From a virus: DNA of 21,272 nt. The translations under genes were made by a program, and so were the position numbers. Location of the stretch: IMG/VR virus record IMGVR_UViG_3300027969_000473, positions 1 to 21,272 of that record, one strand, 5' to 3'. The notes beneath the pieces are model-generated. The model worked only from the letters and a program-made list of their open reading frames with translations. It was not told the DNA's origin and searched no databases. This document shows, piece after piece, positions 1-21,272 of this stretch. How positions within the stretch are numbered: the stretch's first letter is position 1; each line of letters starts with the position of its first letter.

Positions 1-1488
1 GGTAGCGCAGGTTCACCTTACGTTCTAACTCGTTCAGCAGACTTTAATGTGGGTGTTGAAATGCCCGGTGCATTTATATTTGTAGAAATGGGTAGTGTGA
101 ATGATAACACTGGTTGGGTATGTACATCAAATAATCCAATTACAGTTGGAACTACAGATATTACATTTACTCAATTCTCTGGTGCAGGAACATATACCGC
201 AGGTACTGGATTAACATTAACTGGTTCACAGTTTAGTATTTCTAATACAGCAGTAACTGCCGCATCATACGGCGGAAGTGATTCAGTAGCATCATTTACA
301 GTTAATCAACAAGGTCAACTAACAGCAGCATCTAACGTTTCTATTACTGCTAATGCAGCAAACTTGACCGGCACAACATTAAATGCAAGTGTTATAACTT
401 CAAGTTTAACTAGTGTAGGTACTCTTGGTACTCTAACCGTAACCTCAACTATAACTGCTGGAGATGTGTATGCAAATTCAGGTACAATTGGTGCTAGTAA
501 TTTAACTGGTACATTGACAACAGCATCACAACCAAATGTTACATCAGTAGGTACACTATCTAACTTAGCTGCAACTGGTAATGTAAACTTGACTGGTGCA
601 AGTAATGTGTCACTGGGTGCAATTGGTAATGTAAAAGTAACCGGCGGTAGTAATACTCAAGTTATTCAAACAGACGGTAATGGTAATCTAAGTTTTGTAA
701 CTATCAGTACATCAAGTTTAACCAATGGAACTAGTAATTTACAAGTTCTAGCAAGTAGTAATATTACAATGAGTGTTGCAGGCAATGCTAACGTAGTAGT
801 TGTTTCTGGTACTGGTGCTAATATAACCGGTACAGCAAATATTTCAGGTAATCTATCAGCAGGCAACATAGATGCCGGTAACTTGCTAAATGCTAATTAC
901 GTTACGGGCACCTTAACAACTAACGCTCAACCTAATATTACATCAGTAGGTACATTAACATCACTTTCTGTCACAGGTAACATAACAAATGGTAATATTA
1001 CTGGTGGCAATTTAGTTAGTGCTAACTATTTTACCGGTACATTAACAACGAATGCTCAGCCAAACATCACTAGTATTGGTACATTAAGTAATCTATCAGT
1101 TACTGGGAATGTCAGTGCAAACAATGTTACTGCAAATTATGTAGCGTTTAACGGCGGTGCAGTATCAAATCGTAGTAATGTAGGAGTCACTACTAGTGCG
1201 ACTGTTATTGATGAATTTTCTACTGCAACATTTAGAACAGCAAAATATGTGATTAGCGCAGCTAGTGCCAATGGGTATCAATCAATAGAAACATTATTAG
1301 TCCAAGACGGAGCAAACGCATATATAACAATATACGGATCAATATGCACTAATAATGCAGCAGACTTAATTGATATTACTGCTAACATTAATGGTGTTAG
1401 TGGTAATGTAACTGTGTACGCAACAGCAAATTCTACTGTTAGCAGTACAGCAAATGTAAATGTGGTGGTACAATATATATTAACATAA
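1..1488 (+). CDS. Tail-fibre-like structural protein, 5'-truncated by window edge
   Basis: The frame is open from base 1, so at least 495 residues are present and the true start lies outside the window. An internal GTG at 49 is not a credible start, because the first ~75 residues align with an internal domain of the 1515-aa fibre encoded at 2148-6695 (shared motifs QFSGAGTY and GTGLTLTGS). The body is low-complexity and rich in Gly, Asn, Thr, Ser and Val. It carries repeated beta-strand-like units (TSVGTLTSLSVTGN, ANYFTGTLTTNAQPNITS) typical of fibrous phage proteins. A module LGAIGNVKVTGG with QTDGNGNLSF is shared with the next gene. The C-terminal ~110 residues are different in character (TFRTAKYVISA, ETLLVQDGANAYI) and resemble a globular terminal domain common in cyanophage-type structural proteins (from memory). 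It is followed by an AT-rich 42-nt gap. Role in adsorption or as a virion fibre is inferred. Confidence 0.85.
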   Translation, partial: GSAGSPYVLTRSADFNVGVEMPGAFIFVEMGSVNDNTGWVCTSNNPITVGTTDITFTQFSGAGTYTAGTGLTLTGSQFSISNTAVTAASYGGSDSVASFTVNQQGQLTAASNVSITANAANLTGTTLNASVITSSLTSVGTLGTLTVTSTITAGDVYANSGTIGASNLTGTLTTASQPNVTSVGTLSNLAATGNVNLTGASNVSLGAIGNVKVTGGSNTQVIQTDGNGNLSFVTISTSSLTNGTSNLQVLASSNITMSVAGNANVVVVSGTGANITGTANISGNLSAGNIDAGNLLNANYVTGTLTTNAQPNITSVGTLTSLSVTGNITNGNITGGNLVSANYFTGTLTTNAQPNITSIGTLSNLSVTGNVSANNVTANYVAFNGGAVSNRSNVGVTTSATVIDEFSTATFRTAKYVISAASANGYQSIETLLVQDGANAYITIYGSICTNNAADLIDITANINGVSGNVTVYATANSTVSSTANVNVVVQYILT

Positions 1489-1530
1489 TTTAATTAAAAT
1501 TTAATTAAGTTTAACAGGGAAAATGGAACT

Positions 1531-2127
1531 GTGACAACAAAGTACTTTAACGTAAAAAATGGCCTTTCGGCTGGAAATATAACCCTAGACGCAAGTTCTG
1601 GAAATATATCTACCACAAACATATCAGTAACCGATATATCTAATTTAGGTAATGTAGGTAATGTAAAAATTACCGGCGGAACAAACGGGTATGTATTACA
1701 GACTGACGGTTCTGGAAATCTATCTTGGGCGGTGCAGGGAGGCGGAGGCGGTGGTACACCCGGTGGCTCAAATACACAAGTTCAATATAACAATATAGGA
1801 GCATTTGGTGGCTCAGTGGGTTTCACCTATGATAATACTTCTAATACATTATCTGTACCAAATATTCAAGTCAATAGCTTATCCAATTTAGGAAATATTA
1901 GTAATGTGATAATCACCGGCGGAACAAGCGGTTATGTATTACAAACTAATGGCTCAGGCAATTTGTCTTGGACAGCACCAGGTGGGGGCACTGACACTGG
2001 TCAGATGCCGTACTACATCCCTTCAGGAACAACTTATACAGTTCAAGAAAATAGACAAGGTCTGTTTTCAATCCCAATCACAGTCGACGGTGATTTGGTT
2101 GTAAATGGTATTTTAGTACAAGTATGA
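1531..2127 (+). CDS. Short fibre-like structural protein, 198 aa
   Basis: Start is a GTG; no in-frame ATG fits, and the nearby ATG at 1523 is in another frame and stops after three codons, its TGA overlapping this GTG. An AGGGA element at 1515-1519 is the only Shine-Dalgarno candidate. The protein has two tandem copies of a ~30-residue unit (residues ~37-66 and ~118-147, both with SNLGN, ITGG, GYVLQT and SGNLSW), separated by a six-glycine linker and a QVQYNN segment. The C-terminal ~40 residues (MPYYIPSGTTYTV, ENRQGLFSIPI, VDGDLVVNG) form a conserved terminal domain seen in other phage structural proteins. It shares modules with both neighbouring fibre genes, so the three probably form one fibre or adhesin set. 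Exact position in the virion cannot be told. Confidence 0.8.
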   Translation: MTTKYFNVKNGLSAGNITLDASSGNISTTNISVTDISNLGNVGNVKITGGTNGYVLQTDGSGNLSWAVQGGGGGGTPGGSNTQVQYNNIGAFGGSVGFTYDNTSNTLSVPNIQVNSLSNLGNISNVIITGGTSGYVLQTNGSGNLSWTAPGGGTDTGQMPYYIPSGTTYTVQENRQGLFSIPITVDGDLVVNGILVQV

Positions 2128-2130
2128 AAG

Positions 2131-2138
2131 AATAAATA
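2131..2138 (+). promoter_or_regulatory. T4-late-like promoter box (AATAAATA)
   Basis: AATAAATA differs by one base from the T4 late promoter core TATAAATA and lies 9 nt before the ATG of the giant fibre gene. Similar boxes precede 7586 and 19033. In AT-rich DNA such matches also occur by chance, and no late sigma factor is visible in the window, so this is tentative. Confidence 0.3.
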
Positions 2139-2147
2139 GGATTTAAA

Positions 2148-5100
2148 ATGGCATTAATACTCAAACAAGAATCAAACGTAGCAGTAACTACCCCTCCGGC
2201 CGGAAGCGGGTCAATATTTCTTAACGGATCTAACCAAGTATCGGTTAAAGATTCTACTGGAAACGTATCATCTATCCCAACATTTACTGCTACGGGCAAT
2301 ACTCAAGTATTCTATAATGATGCAGGAGGACTTGGTCTATCTGCAAACATGACTTTTGATGAGACTACTAACACTTTTAGTGTTACAACTGCTAATGTAA
2401 ATAGTTTAAATTTTGGATCAGGATCAATCACTGGTACTGGTAATATCACCACAGGAAATATAATTGGTACTATTGCGGCGGGTAGTAATACAATAATAAC
2501 TACAGGAAATGCTAATGTAGGTAATTTAGGATTTGGCTCAGGGGTAATCACTGGTACAGGTAATATCACCGGTGGAAATATAATAGGTATTATTGCAGCT
2601 GGTAGCAATTCTATTACAACATCAGGTAATCTAACAACAGGTAATGCTAATCTTGGTAATCTTGCTTCTGCTAATTATGTAAATGTAAATAATATTTTAA
2701 CTGTAACAGGTAATGCTAATACCGGTAACTTGGGTACTACTACTGCCGTCATAACTACTGGTAATATAACAACAATCAATAGTGGCTTGATGAAAAACGG
2801 ATTATCAAACTTAACCATAGCCGCCGGTGGAAACATATCTACATTTATTAATGGAAACACTACCCCTCAACTTCAAGTTAATAGTGGCGGTGCAAATATT
2901 GCAGGCAATCTAACAACTGGAAATGCTAATCTTGGTAATCTTGCTTCTGCTAATTATTTTACCGGCACATTAACAACTGCTAGTCAACCAAACATTACTT
3001 CAGTTGGTACATTAACATCACTTGATGTAGGTAGCACAGTAACCGCAGTTGCATTTACTGCAAATACAGGTGTATTTACTGGTAATGGAAATGGGTTGAG
3101 TTCTATTGTTGGTGCAAATGTAACCGGAGCAGTAGCATACGCAACTACCGCTAATGCAGTAGCAGGCGCTAATGTCACCGGTGATGTAAGTGGGGCAAAT
3201 CATGCTAATATTGCAGATTCAGCAAACAGTGTAGCGGGTGGCAATGTAACTGGAACGGTAGCAAATGCAACATATTCAGTAAGTGCAGGTACTGCTGGCA
3301 CAGTTACAACTAATGCACAACCTAATATTACATCAGTTGGAACACTAACTAGTTTATCAGTTACTGGTAATATTACTAATGGAAATGTAACCGGTGGTAA
3401 TTTAGTATCTGCTAGTTACTTAGCCGGCACATTAACAACAGCAGCACAGCCCAATATCACTAGTGTTGGAACATTAACATCACTTGGTGTAAGTGGTACA
3501 ATAACCGCCGCAAATATCACGGCAAATACAGGGGTGTTCACTGGTAACGGCAATGGCTTAAGTTCATTAGTAGGCGCTAATGTTACTGGTCAAGTAGGAA
3601 ATGCACTAGTAGCAGGTACTATATATACAAATGCTCAACCAAACATCACTAGTGTAGGCACATTAAGTTCACTTGCCGTAACTGCTAATGCTAACGTAGG
3701 TAACTTATTCTCGGCAGCAGCAGTTCAAGGAACAACTTTAACTTCTAATATTGCCACCGGTACTGCCCCATTAACAGTAACAAGTACAACACGAGTTTCT
3801 AACTTAAACGTTGCTTATGCTAATGTTGCAGATTTCATTAATGTTACAACACAATCAAGTGGTAATGCTTATTTGATGTTTGCAAATGCGTTAACTGGAA
3901 ATGTTACCGAGACTGCAAATGCAACTTTCATAGCAAACACAAGTAACGGCGCACTTTACGCAACAACATTTGTTGGTGCATTATCAGGTGCGGCAACAAG
4001 TGCTACTACTGCAGGTACTGTAACAACAGCAGCACAACCCAATATTACATCAGTGGGTACACTAACATCATTGGGTGTGAACGGCACTGTAACAGCAGTA
4101 GCATTCACTGCTAATACAGGTGTATTTACAGGTAATGGTAACGGGTTGAGTTCATTAGTTGGTGCTAATGTAACTGGTCAAGTAACATACGCCGGCACAG
4201 CTAACTCAGTAGCGGGTGCTAATGTTAGTGGGGCGGTGGCATTTGCGACAACAGCTAACTCAGTAGCGGGTGCTAATGTAAGTGGACAAGTAGGAAACGC
4301 ATTAGTAGCAGGTACAGTATACACCGCTGCACAATCAAATATTACTAGTGTTGGTACATTAACATCATTGGGTGTTAGTGGTACAGTGACAGCAGCAAAC
4401 ATCACAGCTAACACTGGTGTATTCACTGGCAACGGAAATGGATTAAGTTCGTTAGTTGGTGCTAATGTAACCGGTCAAGTGGGTAATGCATTAGTTGCAG
4501 GTACAGTATATACAAATGCACAACCAAATATTACTAGTGTTGGTACATTAACTGGATTAACATTAAGTGGCAATGTTAATATGGGCACCAAGAACATAAC
4601 AAGTCTTGCTGAACCGGTGGCATCTACTGATGCTGCTACAAAGAATTATGTTGATACCGTTGCTCAAGGATTGCACGTACACCAAGCTGCTTACGTAGCA
4701 ACAACTGGTACTTTAGCTACTGCAACAGGTGGAACAGTTACTTATAATAACGGTACAAGTGGAGTAGGTGCTACATTAACTACAACAGGCACTTACTTGT
4801 TAATTGACGGTGGTAATGTACAAACGGTAGGAACACGTATTCTTGTTAAGAATGAAGCAAATGCTGCGTGGAACGGAGTATACACCTATACAAGTACTAC
4901 TGTCATAACCCGTGCAACTGATTTTGATAACTCAATAGAAGTAGCAGGCGGTGACTTCTTATTTGTTACATCAGGTACTACTCAAGCAGATACTAGTTGG
5001 GTGCAAACAACTGATGCACCTATTACCATAGGAACAAGTTTACTTGTATTTGCACAGTTCTCTGGTGCAGGTACTTATCAAGCTGGCACCGGTTTAACAT

Positions 5101-6695
5101 TAACTGGTTCTGTATTCAGTGTTAATGCAAGTCAAACACAGGTTACTTCAGTTGGCACATTAACATCTCTTGGTGTGAGCGGCACCGTAACTGCTGTAGC
5201 ATTTACTGCTAATACAGGTGTATTTACTGGTAATGGTAATGGATTAAGTTCATTAGTTGGTGCTAACGTAACCGGCACTGTAAGTAGTGCAACTACAGCA
5301 GGTACAGTAACCACAGCAGCACAAGGTAATATTACTTCCGTTGGTACACTAACATCGTTGAATGTAAGTGGTACAATCACAGCGCCAAACTTTACTGCAA
5401 ACACAGGTGTATTTACTGGTAATGGAAATGGATTAAGTTCACTAGTCGGTGCTAATGTAACCGGTACAGTGCCGTTCGCAAACGTTGCAACATATGATAG
5501 TATTACACAATTGCTTGCTGGTAATGCTTATTTGCAGTTTGCAAATGCACTTACCGGTACTGCTATTGCATATGCAAACGCAGCATTTGTGGCAAACACA
5601 AGTAATGGTGCATTATATGCAACAACGTTCATTGGTGCTTTGTCAGGTGCAGCAACAAGTGCTACAACAGCAGGTACTGTAACAACTAATGCACAACCTA
5701 ATATTACAAGTACAGGTACATTAACAGGCTTGACAATTGGCAATGCAACTGCTAATGCGGTATTTGGTAATGGCACAATTGTATTAAACAGTGGTCTAAT
5801 AACGGGTAACGGTAATGGCTTAAGTTCATTAGTTGGTGCTAACGTAACCGGTGCTGTATCATTCGCAACAACAGCAAATGCAGTTGCAGGTGCTAATGTA
5901 AGTGGTACTGTGGCCAGTGCTACAACAGCAGGTACAGTAACAACTAATGCACAACCAAATATCACAAGTACAGGTACATTGACAAGTTTATCTGTAACTG
6001 GTAATATCACAGCAGGTAACATCAATGCTGGTAATTTATTAACAGCAAATTATTCAACTGCGGTTATAACAACTAATGCACAACCAAATATCACTTCAGT
6101 TGGTACATTAACATCATTGAGCGTAAACGGCACCGCTACAGCGGTAGCGTTTACTGCAAACACAGGTGTATTTACTGGTAATGGATTTGGGTTAAGTACT
6201 ATTGTTGGTGGTAATGTAACCGGCGCCGTAGCTAGCGCAACTAGTGCAACTACAGCAGGTACTGTAACAACTGCGGCTCAACCAAATATCACTTCAGTGG
6301 GTACATTAACAAGTTTAAGTGTTACTGGTAACATTTCTGGTTCTAATATTATAGCTACTACAAATCATATATTCAGTGTGGCAACAGGTATCTCGGCTGC
6401 CGGAACAGTACAAGCTAATGCTACTGCTGTTACAAAAGACTTCAACGTTGTATCTACTGTAGCATCAGGATCAGGTATAACATTGCCAACCGCAGTTGCC
6501 GGTATGAGAATTACAGTTGTTAACACTAGTGCTAACGCATTAGCGGTCTATCCGTTAGGTAACGGTATTATTAATACACAAGCAGCAAACGTTGCTTACT
6601 CACAACTAGCCGGTGCTAGACTTGACTTTATATGTACCGCAGCAGCAACTGCTCCTGGCGGACAATGGTATACTCTAAATGCTACTTATGCATAA
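2148..6695 (+). CDS. Giant repetitive tail-fibre-like protein, 1515 aa
   Basis: ATG start 12 nt after an AATAAATA box, with AGGA at 2138-2141 as Shine-Dalgarno. The N-terminus (MALILKQESNVAVTTPPAGS) is a cap typical of phage fibre proteins of this kind. The body is dozens of degenerate units such as NITSVGTLTSLGVSGT, AFTANTGVFTGNGNGLSS and VGANVTGAV, predicted to form a long beta-rich trimeric shaft (inference). Residues ~825-988 hold a non-repeat domain (DAATKNYVDTVAQGLHVH, RILVKNEANAAWNGVYTY, TSWVQTTDAPITIGT), a widespread phage fibre module that also begins the gene at position 1. The last ~110 residues (AVTKDFNVV, LPTAVAGMRITVVN, YPLGNGII) form a distinct C-terminal domain. There is no visible peptidase or carbohydrate-active site. 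The stop is 5 nt before the C1A peptidase start, suggesting translational coupling. Confidence 0.88.
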   Translation: MALILKQESNVAVTTPPAGSGSIFLNGSNQVSVKDSTGNVSSIPTFTATGNTQVFYNDAGGLGLSANMTFDETTNTFSVTTANVNSLNFGSGSITGTGNITTGNIIGTIAAGSNTIITTGNANVGNLGFGSGVITGTGNITGGNIIGIIAAGSNSITTSGNLTTGNANLGNLASANYVNVNNILTVTGNANTGNLGTTTAVITTGNITTINSGLMKNGLSNLTIAAGGNISTFINGNTTPQLQVNSGGANIAGNLTTGNANLGNLASANYFTGTLTTASQPNITSVGTLTSLDVGSTVTAVAFTANTGVFTGNGNGLSSIVGANVTGAVAYATTANAVAGANVTGDVSGANHANIADSANSVAGGNVTGTVANATYSVSAGTAGTVTTNAQPNITSVGTLTSLSVTGNITNGNVTGGNLVSASYLAGTLTTAAQPNITSVGTLTSLGVSGTITAANITANTGVFTGNGNGLSSLVGANVTGQVGNALVAGTIYTNAQPNITSVGTLSSLAVTANANVGNLFSAAAVQGTTLTSNIATGTAPLTVTSTTRVSNLNVAYANVADFINVTTQSSGNAYLMFANALTGNVTETANATFIANTSNGALYATTFVGALSGAATSATTAGTVTTAAQPNITSVGTLTSLGVNGTVTAVAFTANTGVFTGNGNGLSSLVGANVTGQVTYAGTANSVAGANVSGAVAFATTANSVAGANVSGQVGNALVAGTVYTAAQSNITSVGTLTSLGVSGTVTAANITANTGVFTGNGNGLSSLVGANVTGQVGNALVAGTVYTNAQPNITSVGTLTGLTLSGNVNMGTKNITSLAEPVASTDAATKNYVDTVAQGLHVHQAAYVATTGTLATATGGTVTYNNGTSGVGATLTTTGTYLLIDGGNVQTVGTRILVKNEANAAWNGVYTYTSTTVITRATDFDNSIEVAGGDFLFVTSGTTQADTSWVQTTDAPITIGTSLLVFAQFSGAGTYQAGTGLTLTGSVFSVNASQTQVTSVGTLTSLGVSGTVTAVAFTANTGVFTGNGNGLSSLVGANVTGTVSSATTAGTVTTAAQGNITSVGTLTSLNVSGTITAPNFTANTGVFTGNGNGLSSLVGANVTGTVPFANVATYDSITQLLAGNAYLQFANALTGTAIAYANAAFVANTSNGALYATTFIGALSGAATSATTAGTVTTNAQPNITSTGTLTGLTIGNATANAVFGNGTIVLNSGLITGNGNGLSSLVGANVTGAVSFATTANAVAGANVSGTVASATTAGTVTTNAQPNITSTGTLTSLSVTGNITAGNINAGNLLTANYSTAVITTNAQPNITSVGTLTSLSVNGTATAVAFTANTGVFTGNGFGLSTIVGGNVTGAVASATSATTAGTVTTAAQPNITSVGTLTSLSVTGNISGSNIIATTNHIFSVATGISAAGTVQANATAVTKDFNVVSTVASGSGITLPTAVAGMRITVVNTSANALAVYPLGNGIINTQAANVAYSQLAGARLDFICTAAATAPGGQWYTLNATYA
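2996..6325 (+). repeat. Degenerate direct-repeat array inside fibre gene
   Basis: The coding DNA carries many imperfect direct repeats. The unit encoding GVFTGNGNGLSS recurs at about 3070, 3532, 4119, 4418, 5217 and 5407, with variants at about 5800 (LITGNGNGLSS) and 6165 (GVFTGNGFGLST). The unit encoding AQPNITSVGTLTSL recurs between them. A longer block (about 3850-4026, encoding GNAYLMFANALTG through GAATSATTAGTV) is repeated at about 5518-5691. Most differences are silent or conservative, which suggests expansion by duplication followed by drift. The boundaries given are approximate. Confidence 0.85.
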
Positions 6696-6700
6696 TCATT

Positions 6701-7546
6701 ATGAAACAAGATCCAAGTACAATAATTGACATAGAACAGGATCCAGGATTACATCGTAAACCTATTCTTCAAAAAATTAAAAAGATTGAACCAGAATTTG
6801 ATATACCTAAATATCATTGGGTACGTGATAAAGTAGATACAAGAGATCATCCATATCAATTAACAAATAAGACACAATCTAATGTAGTTGATTTAAGACA
6901 GTACTGTTCATTAATTGAGAACCAAGGTAACTTGGGCAGTTGTACTGGCAACGCAATAGCAGGGGCAATAGAATTACTATACAAAAGACAAAAGAGGACC
7001 CTTGACATAAGCCGTCTTTTTATCTATTACTATGAAAGAGTGTTAATTGGTACAGTAAATTATGATAGTGGTGCATATATAAGAGATGGTATCAAAGTAT
7101 GTTATAAGTATGGTGCACCAATTGAAAACTTATGGCCATACAATATCAGTAAGTTTAGAAGTGTTCCATCAAAAGAAGCATTGATTGATGCAGCAAAAAG
7201 AAAAGTTACATCATATCAACGTGCAGCAGACTTTAATGCTGTAATAGATGCTATCGCTAGTGGATATCCAGTTACAATTGGATTTAGTGTATATTCAAGT
7301 TTTGACACTAATATAGTAGCAAGAACCGGTATCATGCCGTATCCTGACACTAAGAAAGAGAAATTATTAGGTGGACATGCTGTATTATTAGTTGGGTACA
7401 ATAAAAATGATAACACATTCATAGCTAGAAATAGTTGGGGAACAAATTGGGGTGACCGTGGTTACTTCTACATGCCGTTTCAAGTGATACAAAACACTAG
7501 TATGAGTAGTGATTTCTGGGTTATAAAATCGATATCTAATCCTTAA
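6701..7546 (+). CDS. Papain-like (C1A family) cysteine peptidase, 281 aa
   Basis: The catalytic features of family C1A are all present: oxyanion-hole Gln75 in IENQGNLGSC, nucleophile Cys81 in GSCTGNAIAG, His226 in GGHAVLLVGY, and Asn244 in ARNSWGTNWGDRGYFYMP, which is the classic NSWG signature. A ~65-residue N-terminal extension precedes the core (KYHWVRDKVDTRDHPYQL), as in the propeptide-less C1A-like proteins known from bacteria and large viruses. No signal peptide is visible, so it probably acts in the host cytoplasm or as a virion component. I chose the ATG at 6701 because it lies 5 nt after the fibre stop; upstream in-frame starts would overlap the fibre gene and are not needed. Sitting between fibre genes and glycan enzymes suggests processing of fibre or assembly proteins, or an attack on a host surface protein; neither is proven. 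Confidence 0.9.
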   Translation: MKQDPSTIIDIEQDPGLHRKPILQKIKKIEPEFDIPKYHWVRDKVDTRDHPYQLTNKTQSNVVDLRQYCSLIENQGNLGSCTGNAIAGAIELLYKRQKRTLDISRLFIYYYERVLIGTVNYDSGAYIRDGIKVCYKYGAPIENLWPYNISKFRSVPSKEALIDAAKRKVTSYQRAADFNAVIDAIASGYPVTIGFSVYSSFDTNIVARTGIMPYPDTKKEKLLGGHAVLLVGYNKNDNTFIARNSWGTNWGDRGYFYMPFQVIQNTSMSSDFWVIKSISNP

Positions 7547-7566: not shown

Positions 7567-7606
7567 GCCTAGGATAAATATCTCTATGAGATTTCATATC
7601 CTAGGC
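7567..7606 (+). promoter_or_regulatory. Long hairpin enclosing the start codon of the glycosyltransferase gene
   Basis: Perfect 10-bp inverted repeat GCCTAGGATA (7567-7576) and TATCCTAGGC (7597-7606), with an inner 5-bp stem ATCTC (7580-7584) and GAGAT (7588-7592) closing a 3-nt loop at 7585-7587. The ATG (7586-7588) lies in the loop and inner stem. It is not an intrinsic terminator, since no T-run follows the 3' arm. A translational control role is inferred. Confidence 0.6.
7573..7580 (+). promoter_or_regulatory. T4-late-like promoter box (GATAAATA)
   Basis: GATAAATA matches the T4 late core TATAAATA at seven of eight bases and ends 5 nt before the ATG at 7586. If used as a late -10 element, transcription would begin at or close to the start codon. 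It overlaps the 5' arm of the start-codon hairpin, so the sequence could serve either purpose. Confidence 0.3.
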
Positions 7607-9244
7607 TTACCTCACACGGTAACAAGTAAAGAATACAACGCTTGCGCCTATACACAAAAGGTTGTAAAATTCGGCAAGATGATGAAAGCCCGCGGGCATA
7701 CAATCATTCACTATGGACATGAAGATAGCGATTTAATTTGCGATGAACATGTCACCGTAATCACAAATGAAGATTGGAAAATAGCTTACGGCGATTATGA
7801 TTGGCGTAAAAACTTTTTCAAATTCGATAGAGGTGATCACGCTTATCAAACATTCTTTGCTAATGCTATCAGAGAAGTTGGCAAAAGAAAACAAAAGAAC
7901 GACTTCATATTACCTTTCTGGGGTTCAGGTGTCAGACCAGTATGTGATGCACATCCTGATATGATAGTTGTAGAACCAGGCATTGGTTATGCAGGTGGAC
8001 ATTGGGCACGATGGAAGATATTTGAATCATACTCAATCTATCACGCTTACTATGGCCTTACTGCTGTTGGTACATGTAAACAAGATTGGTATGATGCTGT
8101 CATTCCAAATTACTTTGATATAGATGATTTTGAATTCAAAGAAAAAAAAGAAAATTATTTCTTATACTTAGGTAGAGTTTACGATGGTAAAGGTGTTAAT
8201 GTAGCAATACAAGCAACAGAAGCAGCGGGCGAGAAACTAATTATCGCAGGACAAAAGCCAGATGATATGAAATTTCCTCCTCATGTAGAGTTTGTCGGAT
8301 ATGCTGATATACCCACACGCAAGAAACTAATGAGTAATGCTAAAGGTGCATTCGTTCCAAGTATGTACATAGAACCATTTGGTGGCGTACAGATTGAAAT
8401 GTTAATGAGTGGTACTCCTACAATCACAACTGATTGGGGTAGCTTTACTGAAAACAATTTACATGGTTATACAGGTTATCGTTGTCGTACATTTGATCAC
8501 TTTGTATGGGCAGCAAAGAACATAGATAGAATTGATCCAAAGAATTGCAGAGAGTGGGCAGAGAACTTTACATTAGATAAAGTAGCACCCATGTATGAAG
8601 AATACTTTCAAAATGTATTAAATGTACATGTAGGCAAAGGTTGGTATGAGCGTAAGAATAATCGTGCTGAACTTGATTGGTTAAAGAAAGAATATCCCAA
8701 GCACCCTGAACGATTAAACTATAATCATATGCAAGCAGAGGAAAAGCCTTTTGCTAATAGATTAGCAGCATGGATCAAACAAGAATTGAATCCAGCAACA
8801 TTATTAGACATAGGATGCGGCCCTGGACACTTTGTAGATAGCTTTAGAGATTGTGGAATTGATGCTAAAGGCATAGATGTAGATGACAGAGTACATGGCA
8901 AAGAACATCTTACCTATCAAAGTCTATTTGATATCACAAACGAAAGTGCCGATGTTGTTGTATGCATGGAAGTAGCAGAACACATTGAACAAGCATTGGA
9001 AGATGAAGTAGTTACTAAAGTAGTATCAACTGTTGGCAAGACATTAATATGGACAGCAGCCGCAATAGGTCAAGGTGGCATTGGGCATATCAATTGCAAA
9101 AACAAAAGTGACTGGGCCAAAAAACTTACTAATGCAGGATTAGTAAGAAACACAACCAAAGAACAACAACTAATAACCGATATGAAAAAAGGTGTTCATA
9201 TGGGTTGGTTCACAAACAATTTATTATATTATGAGCGAACATGA
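7586..9244 (+). CDS. Bifunctional GT4-type glycosyltransferase fused to SAM methyltransferase, 552 aa
   Basis: Residues 1-~350 form a GT-B glycosyltransferase. The C-terminal Rossmann half has the GT4 signature: [12 protein letters not shown] (193-204), KLIIAGQKP (217-225), and the EX7E pair Glu263/Glu271 in [10 protein letters not shown], which in GT4 enzymes contacts the nucleotide-sugar donor. Residues ~385-552 are a class I methyltransferase with SAM motif [12 protein letters not shown] (406-416), acidic KGIDVDDR (428-435) and motif [13 protein letters not shown] (457-469). The fusion suggests that one sugar is added and methylated by the same polypeptide. The substrate is unknown; virion fibres rich in Asn, Ser and Thr lie directly upstream, and host surface polysaccharide is the alternative. 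No signal peptide or membrane segment is visible. The 3' end overlaps the next methyltransferase by 14 nt, implying coupled translation. Confidence 0.88.
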
Positions 9245-9788
9245 TTTTGAAATAGAGTATTGGGGCAACTGCGCTAATACATTTGATGAGGATCAAAAGC
9301 ATTATGTCTATGCTAAGTTTATGGAAATACCACAACGGCATTATTCGTTTGATGTTGGTGGTAAACGCATACTTGATATAGGTGGCGGACCAAGTTCCAT
9401 GCTTCTTAAGTGCAAGAATCTAAAAGAGGGTAAAGTCTGTGACCCTATTAATTACCCTGAATGGACTAAACTACGTTATGCTGGACATAACATTAGTGTC
9501 AATGTTCAACCCGGTGAAGAAGTAGATGAAGAAGGGTGGGATGAAGTTTGGATTTATAATTGTCTACAGCATGTTGAAAGTGTAGAACGAATCATTAACA
9601 ATGCTAAACGAGCAGCACCAGTGCTTAGACTGTTTGAATGGATAGATATTCCACCGCATGATGGACACCCATTTGAGTTAACTAAAGATATGTTAGACGG
9701 GTTGATAGCATTGCCAGGATCGGGAACTGCAAAATTAAATGAATCTGGTTGTTACGGTAAAGCATACTACGGAGTATTCAAGCAATAA
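9231..9788 (+). CDS. Class I SAM-dependent methyltransferase-like protein, 185 aa
   Basis: Contains a SAM-binding glycine motif [16 protein letters not shown] (about residues 46-61), followed by [10 protein letters not shown] and a motif resembling post-motif segments of class I methyltransferases, [14 protein letters not shown], which parallels [12 protein letters not shown] in the preceding protein. I chose the ATG at 9231 because it gives a 14-nt overlap with the upstream gene and starts just before the conserved region; an upstream in-frame ATG at 9192 would add 13 residues coded inside the neighbour. It is probably a partner of the glycosyltransferase-methyltransferase fusion, modifying the same glycan or a protein. 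The gene ends directly at a strong terminator. Confidence 0.78.
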
Positions 9789-9811
9789 AAAAGCCCCTTT
9801 CGGGGCTTTTT
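9788..9811. terminator. Bidirectional intrinsic terminator between convergent gene blocks
   Basis: Ten-bp stem AAAAAGCCCC / GGGGCTTTTT with a TTTC loop (GAAA on the other strand) and T-runs on both strands. It closes the plus-strand block right at the stop codon ending at 9788, and the minus-strand gene ending at 9810 places its stop inside the stem. Confidence 0.93.
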
Positions 9812-20483: not shown

Positions 20484-21272
20484 TTACGCCAAATCGTAGC
20501 GACTGTTCATCACAGCCTTAAGCATGATAGCTTCTGGGCTAAATGCATCTGGGTCTGCACCCAATACACTAGCAGCGATTGCTGGGCTGAATCCTGACAC
20601 AAGAGCGGTACCACCCTTGTCGAACTTAACTGGAGCGTTTCCGCTACTGTTCAAGTTCCAAAAAACTACCTTAGGCAAATCGTAACCTGCTTCGGCATAC
20701 TTACGTGCGATCATTTCCATTGCACTGTCATCATACTTAACGCAGGCGTTAAATTGCATGTCGCTGAAAATCATCAGTGTCTCAGGCATTTCTGCTTGTG
20801 ATACCTTGTTCTTAACAGCAGTGTCAAGGATTTGACTGAACGCACCATGTAGGTTTGTACTCATACCCCAATCAGAACTGACCATTTGGTCAATCTTTTC
20901 GTTGATGGAACCCTTAAGGTTCAACAACTTTGGCTTGTCGCTGAAAGTCAAAAAGCAGTCCTTGAACTTACCCTTGTTCTTATCAGCAAAATACAATCCC
21001 AAACTAACTGCGATTTCTAGGCAAGTAGTAGAACCCTTCTTCCCTGCAATGCAGGTCATAGAGCCACTAACGTCAACTAGAGGCAACACACTTGAGTCAC
21101 CAACATAGTTAGGCAATGCATTCCATTGTGCTTCAATAGCATCCAACTCGGTCTTAGACCAACTTAATGCTGAACCGTATCCAGTGATACGACCCTTCAA
21201 CACATCGTGTGGGAAGATTGCGTTAGCATTGATCTTCACACCTGCTTCACCCTTAACCAACTTAGTGATGTA
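20484..21272 (-). CDS. DUF2828 / von Willebrand A domain protein, N-terminus cut by window edge
   Basis: The frame is open to the last base (262 residues present), so the N-terminal part lies outside. The visible part is a vWA domain with MIDAS residues: DVSGS in LPLVDVSGSMTCI, Thr in DWGMSTNLHGAF and Asp in LMIFSDMQFN. The surrounding sequence (LTFSDKPKLLNL, MPETLMIFSDMQF, EAGYDLPKVVFWNLNSSG, GTALVSGFSP) matches the DUF2828 family, known from plants, fungi, giant viruses and phages; its N-terminal half resembles the RNA-binding TROVE fold of Ro60. The role in phages is unknown; metal-dependent protein or RNA scaffolding is likely. Family members usually exceed 400 aa, so about half is missing here. 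TAA stop, then a hairpin terminator. Confidence 0.9.
   Translation of the reverse strand, partial: YITKLVKGEAGVKINANAIFPHDVLKGRITGYGSALSWSKTELDAIEAQWNALPNYVGDSSVLPLVDVSGSMTCIAGKKGSTTCLEIAVSLGLYFADKNKGKFKDCFLTFSDKPKLLNLKGSINEKIDQMVSSDWGMSTNLHGAFSQILDTAVKNKVSQAEMPETLMIFSDMQFNACVKYDDSAMEMIARKYAEAGYDLPKVVFWNLNSSGNAPVKFDKGGTALVSGFSPAIAASVLGADPDAFSPEAIMLKAVMNSRYDLA

What the first reader, a model, noticed from the sequence alone, without database searches (positions are those of the whole stretch)
7586..9788. Glycosyltransferase-methyltransferase fusion plus second methyltransferase next to fibre genes
A GT4-type enzyme with EX7E is fused to a SAM methyltransferase and overlaps a second methyltransferase-like gene. 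Adjacent are three Asn/Ser/Thr-rich fibre genes and a C1A peptidase on the same strand up to one terminator. The set could be a virion decoration system: a sugar attached to fibres, then methylated, with the peptidase maturing the product. Phage fibre glycosylation is little described. The alternative is modification of host glycans.
Basis: partly seen in the sequence, partly recalled or inferred. Interest (0 to 1): 0.62.

Follow-up and report, generated by a model that had tools for sequence, protein, structure and literature searches.

The report
Phage enzymes that may sugar-coat fibres
A freshwater virus of bacteria carries, at the end of its fibre gene set, a fused sugar-attaching and methyl-adding enzyme plus a second methyl-adding enzyme; the same enzyme family recurs in many aquatic phages beside collagen-like fibre genes, which suggests (but does not prove) that these phages put methylated sugars on their own fibres.

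Summary
Window 7586-9244 encodes a GT4-type glycosyltransferase (PHROG 3408, EX7E intact) fused to an intact class I SAM methyltransferase. It overlaps by 14 nt a second class I methyltransferase (PHROG 3603, real start 9231). Both close a + strand unit of three fibre genes and a C1A peptidase, ending at a hairpin at 9788-9811. Of 43 non-redundant loci, 23 have a fibre or collagen-like gene within three genes of the GT. Collagen-like genes are about six times commoner near the GT than farther out (p=5e-6). Phages with the GT carry collagen-like genes more often than comparison phages without it (7/9 versus 3/42). The collagen tracts are 61% Thr at position Y. The GT also occurs fused to a FkbM methyltransferase or to a second GT. 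DNA glycosylation is disfavoured. Limits: no virion chemistry exists; the window's own fibres lack collagen repeats and turn over while the GT is kept; in some lineages the GT-methyltransferase pair lies among nucleotide-metabolism genes; the peptidase is seldom linked. Host-glycan modification remains the main rival. I call it a new variant of phage virion glycosylation, about 58% likely.

The parts
1..1488 (+). fibre gene 1 (cut by the window's left end), Asn/Ser/Thr/Gly-rich, SVGTL-type repeats
   Evidence: ORF list; PHROG 30390 and 27782 of unknown function; no PF01391 collagen match
1531..2127 (+). fibre gene 2 (198 aa), same composition
   Evidence: a 41-49 aa stretch resembles fibre proteins of L005, L030 and L032
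2148..6695 (+). fibre gene 3 (1515 aa), 14 SVGTL-type repeats, 284 Thr
   Evidence: weak PHROG tail fibre match 1.5e-4
6701..7546 (+). C1A (papain-type) cysteine peptidase, 281 aa, catalytic motifs present; co-transcribed neighbour, link to the enzymes not established
   Evidence: Pfam Peptidase_C1 3.8e-17; PDB 3ois 3e-49; relatives align from residue 24 of the long ORF, which is this ATG
7586..8701 (+). GT4-type retaining glycosyltransferase domain (about residues 1-372 of the fusion)
   Evidence: PHROG 3408 2e-197; stand-alone relatives end at about residue 372; model pLDDT 89.5 with best PDB matches tll1591 and biopterin glucosyltransferases
8711..9244 (+). fused class I SAM methyltransferase domain (about residues 376-552)
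   Evidence: Pfam Methyltransf_23 1.8e-11; profile matches UbiG-type O-methyltransferases 3e-9; conserved motifs
9231..9788 (+). second class I methyltransferase, PHROG 3603, 185 aa, overlaps the fusion by 14 nt
   Evidence: alignments; fold; GT within 4 genes in 33 of 37 relatives' loci
9788..9811 (.). terminator-like hairpin closing the + strand unit and, read the other way, the opposing - strand unit
   Evidence: 10 pairs, 5 GC, 4-nt loop, found on both strands

Best explanation
The gene pair is the end of a late fibre operon and makes an enzyme set that decorates the phage's own Thr/Ser-rich fibres. The GT4 domain transfers a sugar, probably from UDP-glucose or a related UDP-sugar, with retention, onto Thr/Ser hydroxyls of the fibre (in most relatives the Thr of Gly-X-Thr collagen repeats) or onto a first sugar there. 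The fused and the separate methyltransferases then O-methylate the glycan, which caps or varies it. Shown: domains, intact active-site motifs, the operon, recurrent fusion and overlap of GT with methyltransferases, and statistical linkage of the GT with collagen-like fibre genes. Inferred: the donor, the acceptor, the methylated position, and that the product is on the virion.
For: Gene order and terminator. The same GT family borders collagen-like or fibre genes in cyanophages S-CAM7, ACG-2014f and S-CBWM1 and in 23 of 43 non-redundant loci. Near versus far collagen density is 23/208 against 8/402 genes, p=5e-6. GT-bearing IMG/VR records carry PF01391 collagen in 28 of 35 cases. Controls: records fetched through an unrelated gene, 4/6 with GT versus 2/32 without; reference cyanophages, 3/3 versus 1/10; pooled p=3e-5. 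Gly-X-Thr makes up 61% of 7063 triplets, against a published bacterial mean of 31.6% Thr at Y (PMC8968730). A GT-methyltransferase fusion at 35-37% identity in a Rubrivivax MAG contig also has a Gly-X-Thr collagen gene next door. The GT is fused to MTd (46 genes), to FkbM (3), to both (1) or to a second GT (2). Loci without a fibre next door can still sit at portal, neck, tail or terminase genes. Precedents: BclA of B. anthracis, a glycosylated collagen-like protein carrying the O-methylated sugar anthrose, and mimivirus L230 (PMC9614988; PMC8968730); mycobacteriophage capsid and tail-tube glycosylation (as cited in PMC12619734 and PMC12363180).
Against: No chemistry on any virion. The three fibres in the window have no collagen match. 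Among close relatives the fibres are replaced while the GT stays 84-90% identical, so no specific enzyme-fibre match is visible. In one phage group (L168, L193, L160, L182, L163, L159) the GT-MT2 pair lies among helicase, MazG-like and dCMP-deaminase-like genes; 4 of the 6 corresponding records do carry collagen elsewhere and L168 and L163 do not, but these are fragments. The nearest solved structures are small-molecule or saccharide GTs, not protein GTs. Fibre regions of aquatic phages are also cargo hot spots (PMC7029224).
Confidence: 0.58

Rival explanations
1. The enzymes modify a host surface glycan (LPS or exopolysaccharide) during infection, to block superinfection by competing phages. 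They sit by the fibre genes because both belong to the host-recognition hypervariable region.
For: Authors of the pelagimyophage survey read glycosyltransferases in the same type of region this way (PMC7029224). The family's nearest structures act on small molecules or saccharides. The enzymes persist while fibres are swapped. Some loci hold sugar-biosynthesis genes: an epimerase and FkbM (L016) and a sugar C-methyltransferase (L082).
Against: It does not predict the specific association with collagen-like genes against controls, nor their presence elsewhere in the record in several phages where the pair is remote. No membrane or O-antigen machinery was seen beside the window genes.
Confidence: 0.27
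2. The GT glycosylates phage DNA bases, as T4 glucosyltransferases do, and the methyltransferases act on DNA or on the base sugar.
For: In one phage group the pair lies beside MazG-like and dCMP-deaminase-like genes. Phage DNA glycosyltransferases are diverse (Pyle 2024, as cited in PMC12619734).
Against: The usual makers of a hydroxymethylated base are missing: Tet/JBP over the cut-off in 1 of 31 GT-bearing records, thymidylate synthase / hydroxymethylase family in 2 of 27. The pair is usually not placed with replication genes.
Confidence: 0.06
3. The genes are unrelated cargo in a variable late region. The GT and methyltransferases make or modify a small molecule or host metabolite, and the link to fibres is positional only.
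For: Best structural neighbours include UDP-glucose:tetrahydrobiopterin glucosyltransferases and BshA. The accessory set after the GT varies between close relatives.
Against: The GT is conserved at 72-74% identity between the window and marine cyanophages and is repeatedly tied to methyltransferases and collagen-like genes, more than random cargo would give.
Confidence: 0.09

Closest known systems
PHROG 3408 / 3603 gene pair of Synechococcus phages ACG-2014f and S-CAM7 (Kyanoviridae)
   Same: Same GT (72-74% identity); in ACG-2014f also the same overlapping second methyltransferase (64%); placed between collagen-like and tail fibre genes
   Different: There the GT stands alone and MT2 precedes it; the cyanophages add a 2OG-Fe(II) oxygenase; the window has the GT-methyltransferase fusion, no oxygenase in the unit, and SVGTL-type fibres
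Virion glycosylation of mycobacteriophages (Che8, Corndog, Myrna; Freeman 2023, known here through PMC12363180 and PMC12619734)
   Same: Phage-encoded glycosyltransferase acting on its own structural proteins
   Different: There capsid and tail tube are modified and chemistry is proven; here fibres are proposed, methyltransferases are fused or overlapping, and no chemistry exists; homology of the enzymes was not tested
BclA-type glycosylated collagen-like proteins of Bacillus exosporium
   Same: Collagen-like, Thr-rich protein with O-methylated sugars (PMC9614988; PMC8968730)
   Different: Bacterial spore surface; its enzymes were not compared here; the window's fibres have no collagen repeats
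Mimivirus L230 lysyl hydroxylase / collagen glucosyltransferase
   Same: A virus glucosylates its own collagen-like protein with a two-domain enzyme (PMC9614988)
   Different: L230 couples hydroxylase with a GT and acts on hydroxylysine; here methyltransferase plus GT4, and only 9 of 31 GT-bearing records have a PF13640 oxygenase

Membership tests
GT4-type retaining glycosyltransferase | GT-B fold | tested here: met
   AlphaFold model pLDDT 89.5; Foldseek best matches are GT4-type enzymes such as tll1591, biopterin glucosyltransferase and BshA, TMt 0.7-0.8
GT4-type retaining glycosyltransferase | EX7E motif | tested here: met
   E263 and E271, invariant in 39 homologues
GT4-type retaining glycosyltransferase | retaining sugar transfer with a defined donor | not testable with these tools
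   needs enzyme assay
class I SAM methyltransferase (fused domain) | motif I GxGxG and Rossmann-type fold | tested here: met
   DIGCGPG conserved; profile hits to UbiG-type O-methyltransferases
class I SAM methyltransferase (second gene) | motif I and fold | tested here: met
   DIGGGP nearly invariant; fold by Foldseek E 2e-7; sequence profiles alone are weak
phage virion glycosylation system | phage-encoded GT linked to structural genes | tested here: met
   23 of 43 non-redundant loci next to fibre or collagen-like genes; others at portal, neck or terminase genes
phage virion glycosylation system | glycan present on a virion protein | not testable with these tools
   needs mass spectrometry of virions
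collagen glycosylation system (BclA / L230 kind) | collagen-like substrate encoded in the same genome | tested here: inconclusive
   met in 28 of 35 GT-bearing records, but the 21-kb window holds none; near relatives L005 and L030 do in the same slot
collagen glycosylation system (L230 kind) | hydroxylase partner | tested here: not met
   no oxygenase among the genes of the window's + strand unit; PF13640 in 9 of 31 GT-bearing records
phage DNA base glycosyltransferase | a hydroxymethyl-pyrimidine supplier in the genome | tested here: not met
   Tet/JBP 1 of 31; thymidylate synthase family 2 of 27; records may be incomplete

The most novel reading that the evidence does not exclude
Aquatic tailed phages carry a portable post-translational modification cassette (GT4 plus exchangeable methyltransferases, further GTs and sometimes a hydroxylase) that coats Thr-rich collagen-like and other repetitive fibres with methylated sugars. 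The cassette is exchanged by fusion and fission to vary the virion surface: a phage counterpart of spore-collagen glycosylation.
Probability: 0.35. Interest if true: 0.78.

Novelty: new variant of a known kind. Interest (0 to 1): 0.5.

Why it matters
Virion glycosylation of tailed phages is proven for only a few mycobacteriophages (as far as the papers read here say). If this cassette acts on fibres, methylated glycans on collagen-like phage fibres would be common in lakes and oceans. They could stiffen fibres, shield them, or change host binding, and host-range predictions that treat fibres as bare protein would need revision. The claim is directly testable on cultured cyanophages (S-CAM7, ACG-2014f) that carry the same GT.

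Tried and rejected
DNA glycosylation: tested by searching for Tet/JBP and thymidylate synthase families; mostly absent. Hydroxylation-dependent collagen glycosylation: the 2OG oxygenase is linked in some cyanophages but is in only 9 of 31 records, so it cannot be required. C1A peptidase as part of the system: 3 of 35 loci, not supported. N-glycosylation sequons in the window fibres: only modestly above composition shuffles (23 vs 17, 8 vs 5, 61 vs 46), and GT4 enzymes are not oligosaccharyltransferases; not pursued. Thr-at-Y comparison with collagens of GT-negative phages: only P-SSM2 (27%) and one aberrant family (41%) available, too few to conclude. Bacterial relatives: only three hits in genome contigs, at least some probably phage contigs binned into MAGs. 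PDB sequence profile for MT2: no useful hit. Human-gut phage relatives H52/H53 (27%): unannotated, context not analysed. Several family searches failed on wrong frames. One seed profile (L3_016) was invalid because a stale file was reused; its labels were ignored throughout. The 2OG count is low because it uses single seeds; one search is the proper test.

Full report
OBSERVATION. The window is a 21-kb fragment of a virus record. Its left half is a + strand unit: three Asn/Ser/Thr-rich fibre genes (1-1488, cut at the left; 1531-2127; 2148-6695), a C1A cysteine peptidase (likely start 6701), the GT-methyltransferase fusion (7586-9244) and a second methyltransferase (likely start 9231, stop 9788), closed by a hairpin at 9788-9811. 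The - strand genes to the right include primase-like, phosphoesterase-like and PHROG 850 genes. The GT half matches PHROG 3408 at E 2e-197 and Pfam Glycos_transf_1 at 1.6e-14. EX7E is E263/E271 and is invariant in 39 homologues. The fused methyltransferase half and the second gene carry motif I and conserved residues. The second gene's membership in the class I methyltransferases rests mainly on its predicted structure, since its Pfam match is weak (0.05).

STRUCTURE. The AlphaFold model of the fusion has pLDDT 89.5. The best solved matches are UDP-glucose GT4-type enzymes: tll1591, tetrahydrobiopterin glucosyltransferases, then BshA. This makes UDP-glucose a reasonable first donor to test, no more. 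The fused methyltransferase profile finds UbiG-type O-methyltransferases.

RELATIVES. In the phage collection the GT occurs, at 72-74% identity, only in S-CAM7 and ACG-2014f, plus S-CBWM1 at 29% and two remote gut fragments. In all three named phages it lies beside collagen-like genes. In S-CAM7 and ACG-2014f it also lies beside a 2OG-Fe(II) oxygenase and a tail fibre gene, and in ACG-2014f it overlaps the same MT2. IMG/VR gave at least 150 close and 582 wider candidate stretches, of which 80 loci per search were kept. Eighty loci anchored on MT2 were also taken. Domain architectures: GT alone, GT+methyltransferase (46 genes), GT+FkbM (3), GT+methyltransferase+FkbM (1), GT+GT (2), and GT followed by a separate methyltransferase. 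Among MT2 loci with enough flank, 33 of 37 have the GT within four genes. The GT and the methyltransferases therefore form one functional unit; which atoms they act on is inference.

LINK TO FIBRES. I clustered GT genes at 92% identity and kept loci with 4 kb on both sides: 23 of 43 have a collagen-like or low-complexity fibre gene within three genes. In the GT-anchored set, collagen-like genes make up 23 of 208 near neighbours and 8 of 402 farther ones, p=5e-6. Fibre adjacency could reflect a cargo hot spot, so I also asked whether the GT predicts collagen-like genes anywhere in the record. Of 35 GT-bearing records, 28 have them above the Pfam cut-off. Records fetched through an unrelated gene of the window: 4/6 with GT versus 2/32 without. 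Named cyanophages: 3/3 versus 1/10. Pooled 7/9 versus 3/42, p=3e-5. These tests ignore phylogeny, record lengths differ, and the GT-negative cyanophages were chosen by me from well-known isolates, so the p-values are guides only. In loci with no fibre next door the GT can still sit at neck and tail-sheath-stabiliser (L090), portal and head (L016), fibre (L096) or terminase (L113, L052) genes.

SUBSTRATE HINT. In GT-bearing loci 61% of 7063 Gly-X-Y triplets have Thr at Y; a review gives 31.6% for bacteria overall and 48.3% for Gram-positives (PMC8968730). BclA, a glycosylated collagen-like spore protein that carries the O-methylated sugar anthrose, is the obvious analogue (PMC9614988; PMC8968730). 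Comparison collagens from GT-negative phages were too few to test this properly.

WHAT SPEAKS AGAINST. The window's own fibres have no collagen repeats. Close relatives keep C1A (79-92%), GT (84-90%) and MT2 (88-90%) but have non-homologous fibres with Gly-Ala-Thr repeats in the same slot. Either the enzyme accepts generic Thr/Ser-rich surfaces, or the acceptor is not the fibre. In one phage group the GT-MT2 pair lies by helicase, MazG-like and dCMP-deaminase-like genes. A published survey interprets glycosyltransferases in comparable regions as modifying the host O-chain (PMC7029224). DNA glycosylation is disfavoured because hydroxymethylating enzymes are mostly absent.

CONCLUSION. Observation confirmed. 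The virion-decoration reading is the best supported but unproven (0.58); host glycan modification is next (0.27). The peptidase is probably a separate fibre-operon gene. Literature searches of the held library found no description of this GT-methyltransferase-collagen association; most subscription papers are not held, so that is weak evidence of novelty. Mycobacteriophage virion glycosylation is known, hence 'new variant of a known kind'.

Noticed in passing
window 1-6695 versus L005, L030, L032: The fibre genes are almost wholly replaced between close relatives while the flanking peptidase, GT, MT2 and - strand genes stay 65-95% identical.
   Followed up: partly
window 6701-7546: A papain-type peptidase close to bacterial xylellain-like enzymes (PDB 3ois) sits directly behind the longest fibre gene; conserved in close relatives but rarely linked to the GT elsewhere.
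   Followed up: partly
L090:4330-5928, L100:11607-13229, L119:8320-9990: A large GT2-type enzyme (in L090 fused to an HtrL_YibB domain) sits directly beside the GT-methyltransferase fusion in several phages; likely a second sugar-transfer step.
   Followed up: no
L082:8023-9261 and L016:12263-13072: Sugar C-methyltransferase and NAD-dependent epimerase genes beside the GT suggest phage-made deoxysugars in some lineages.
   Followed up: no
L168, L193, L160, L182, L113: A separate phage group carries GT plus MT2 or MTd among MazG-like, dCMP-deaminase-like and packaging genes, with Gly-X-Thr collagen genes elsewhere in several of the records.
   Followed up: partly
window 20484-21260, - strand: PHROG 850 / DUF7788 protein (annotated RNA-binding), widespread in large phages of many hosts, 45-48% identical across them.
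   Followed up: no
L037 and L105: In L105 the GT and methyltransferase are separate neighbouring reading frames; met stops when the tblastn span was read as one frame, so fission or frameshift variants of the fusion exist.
   Followed up: no
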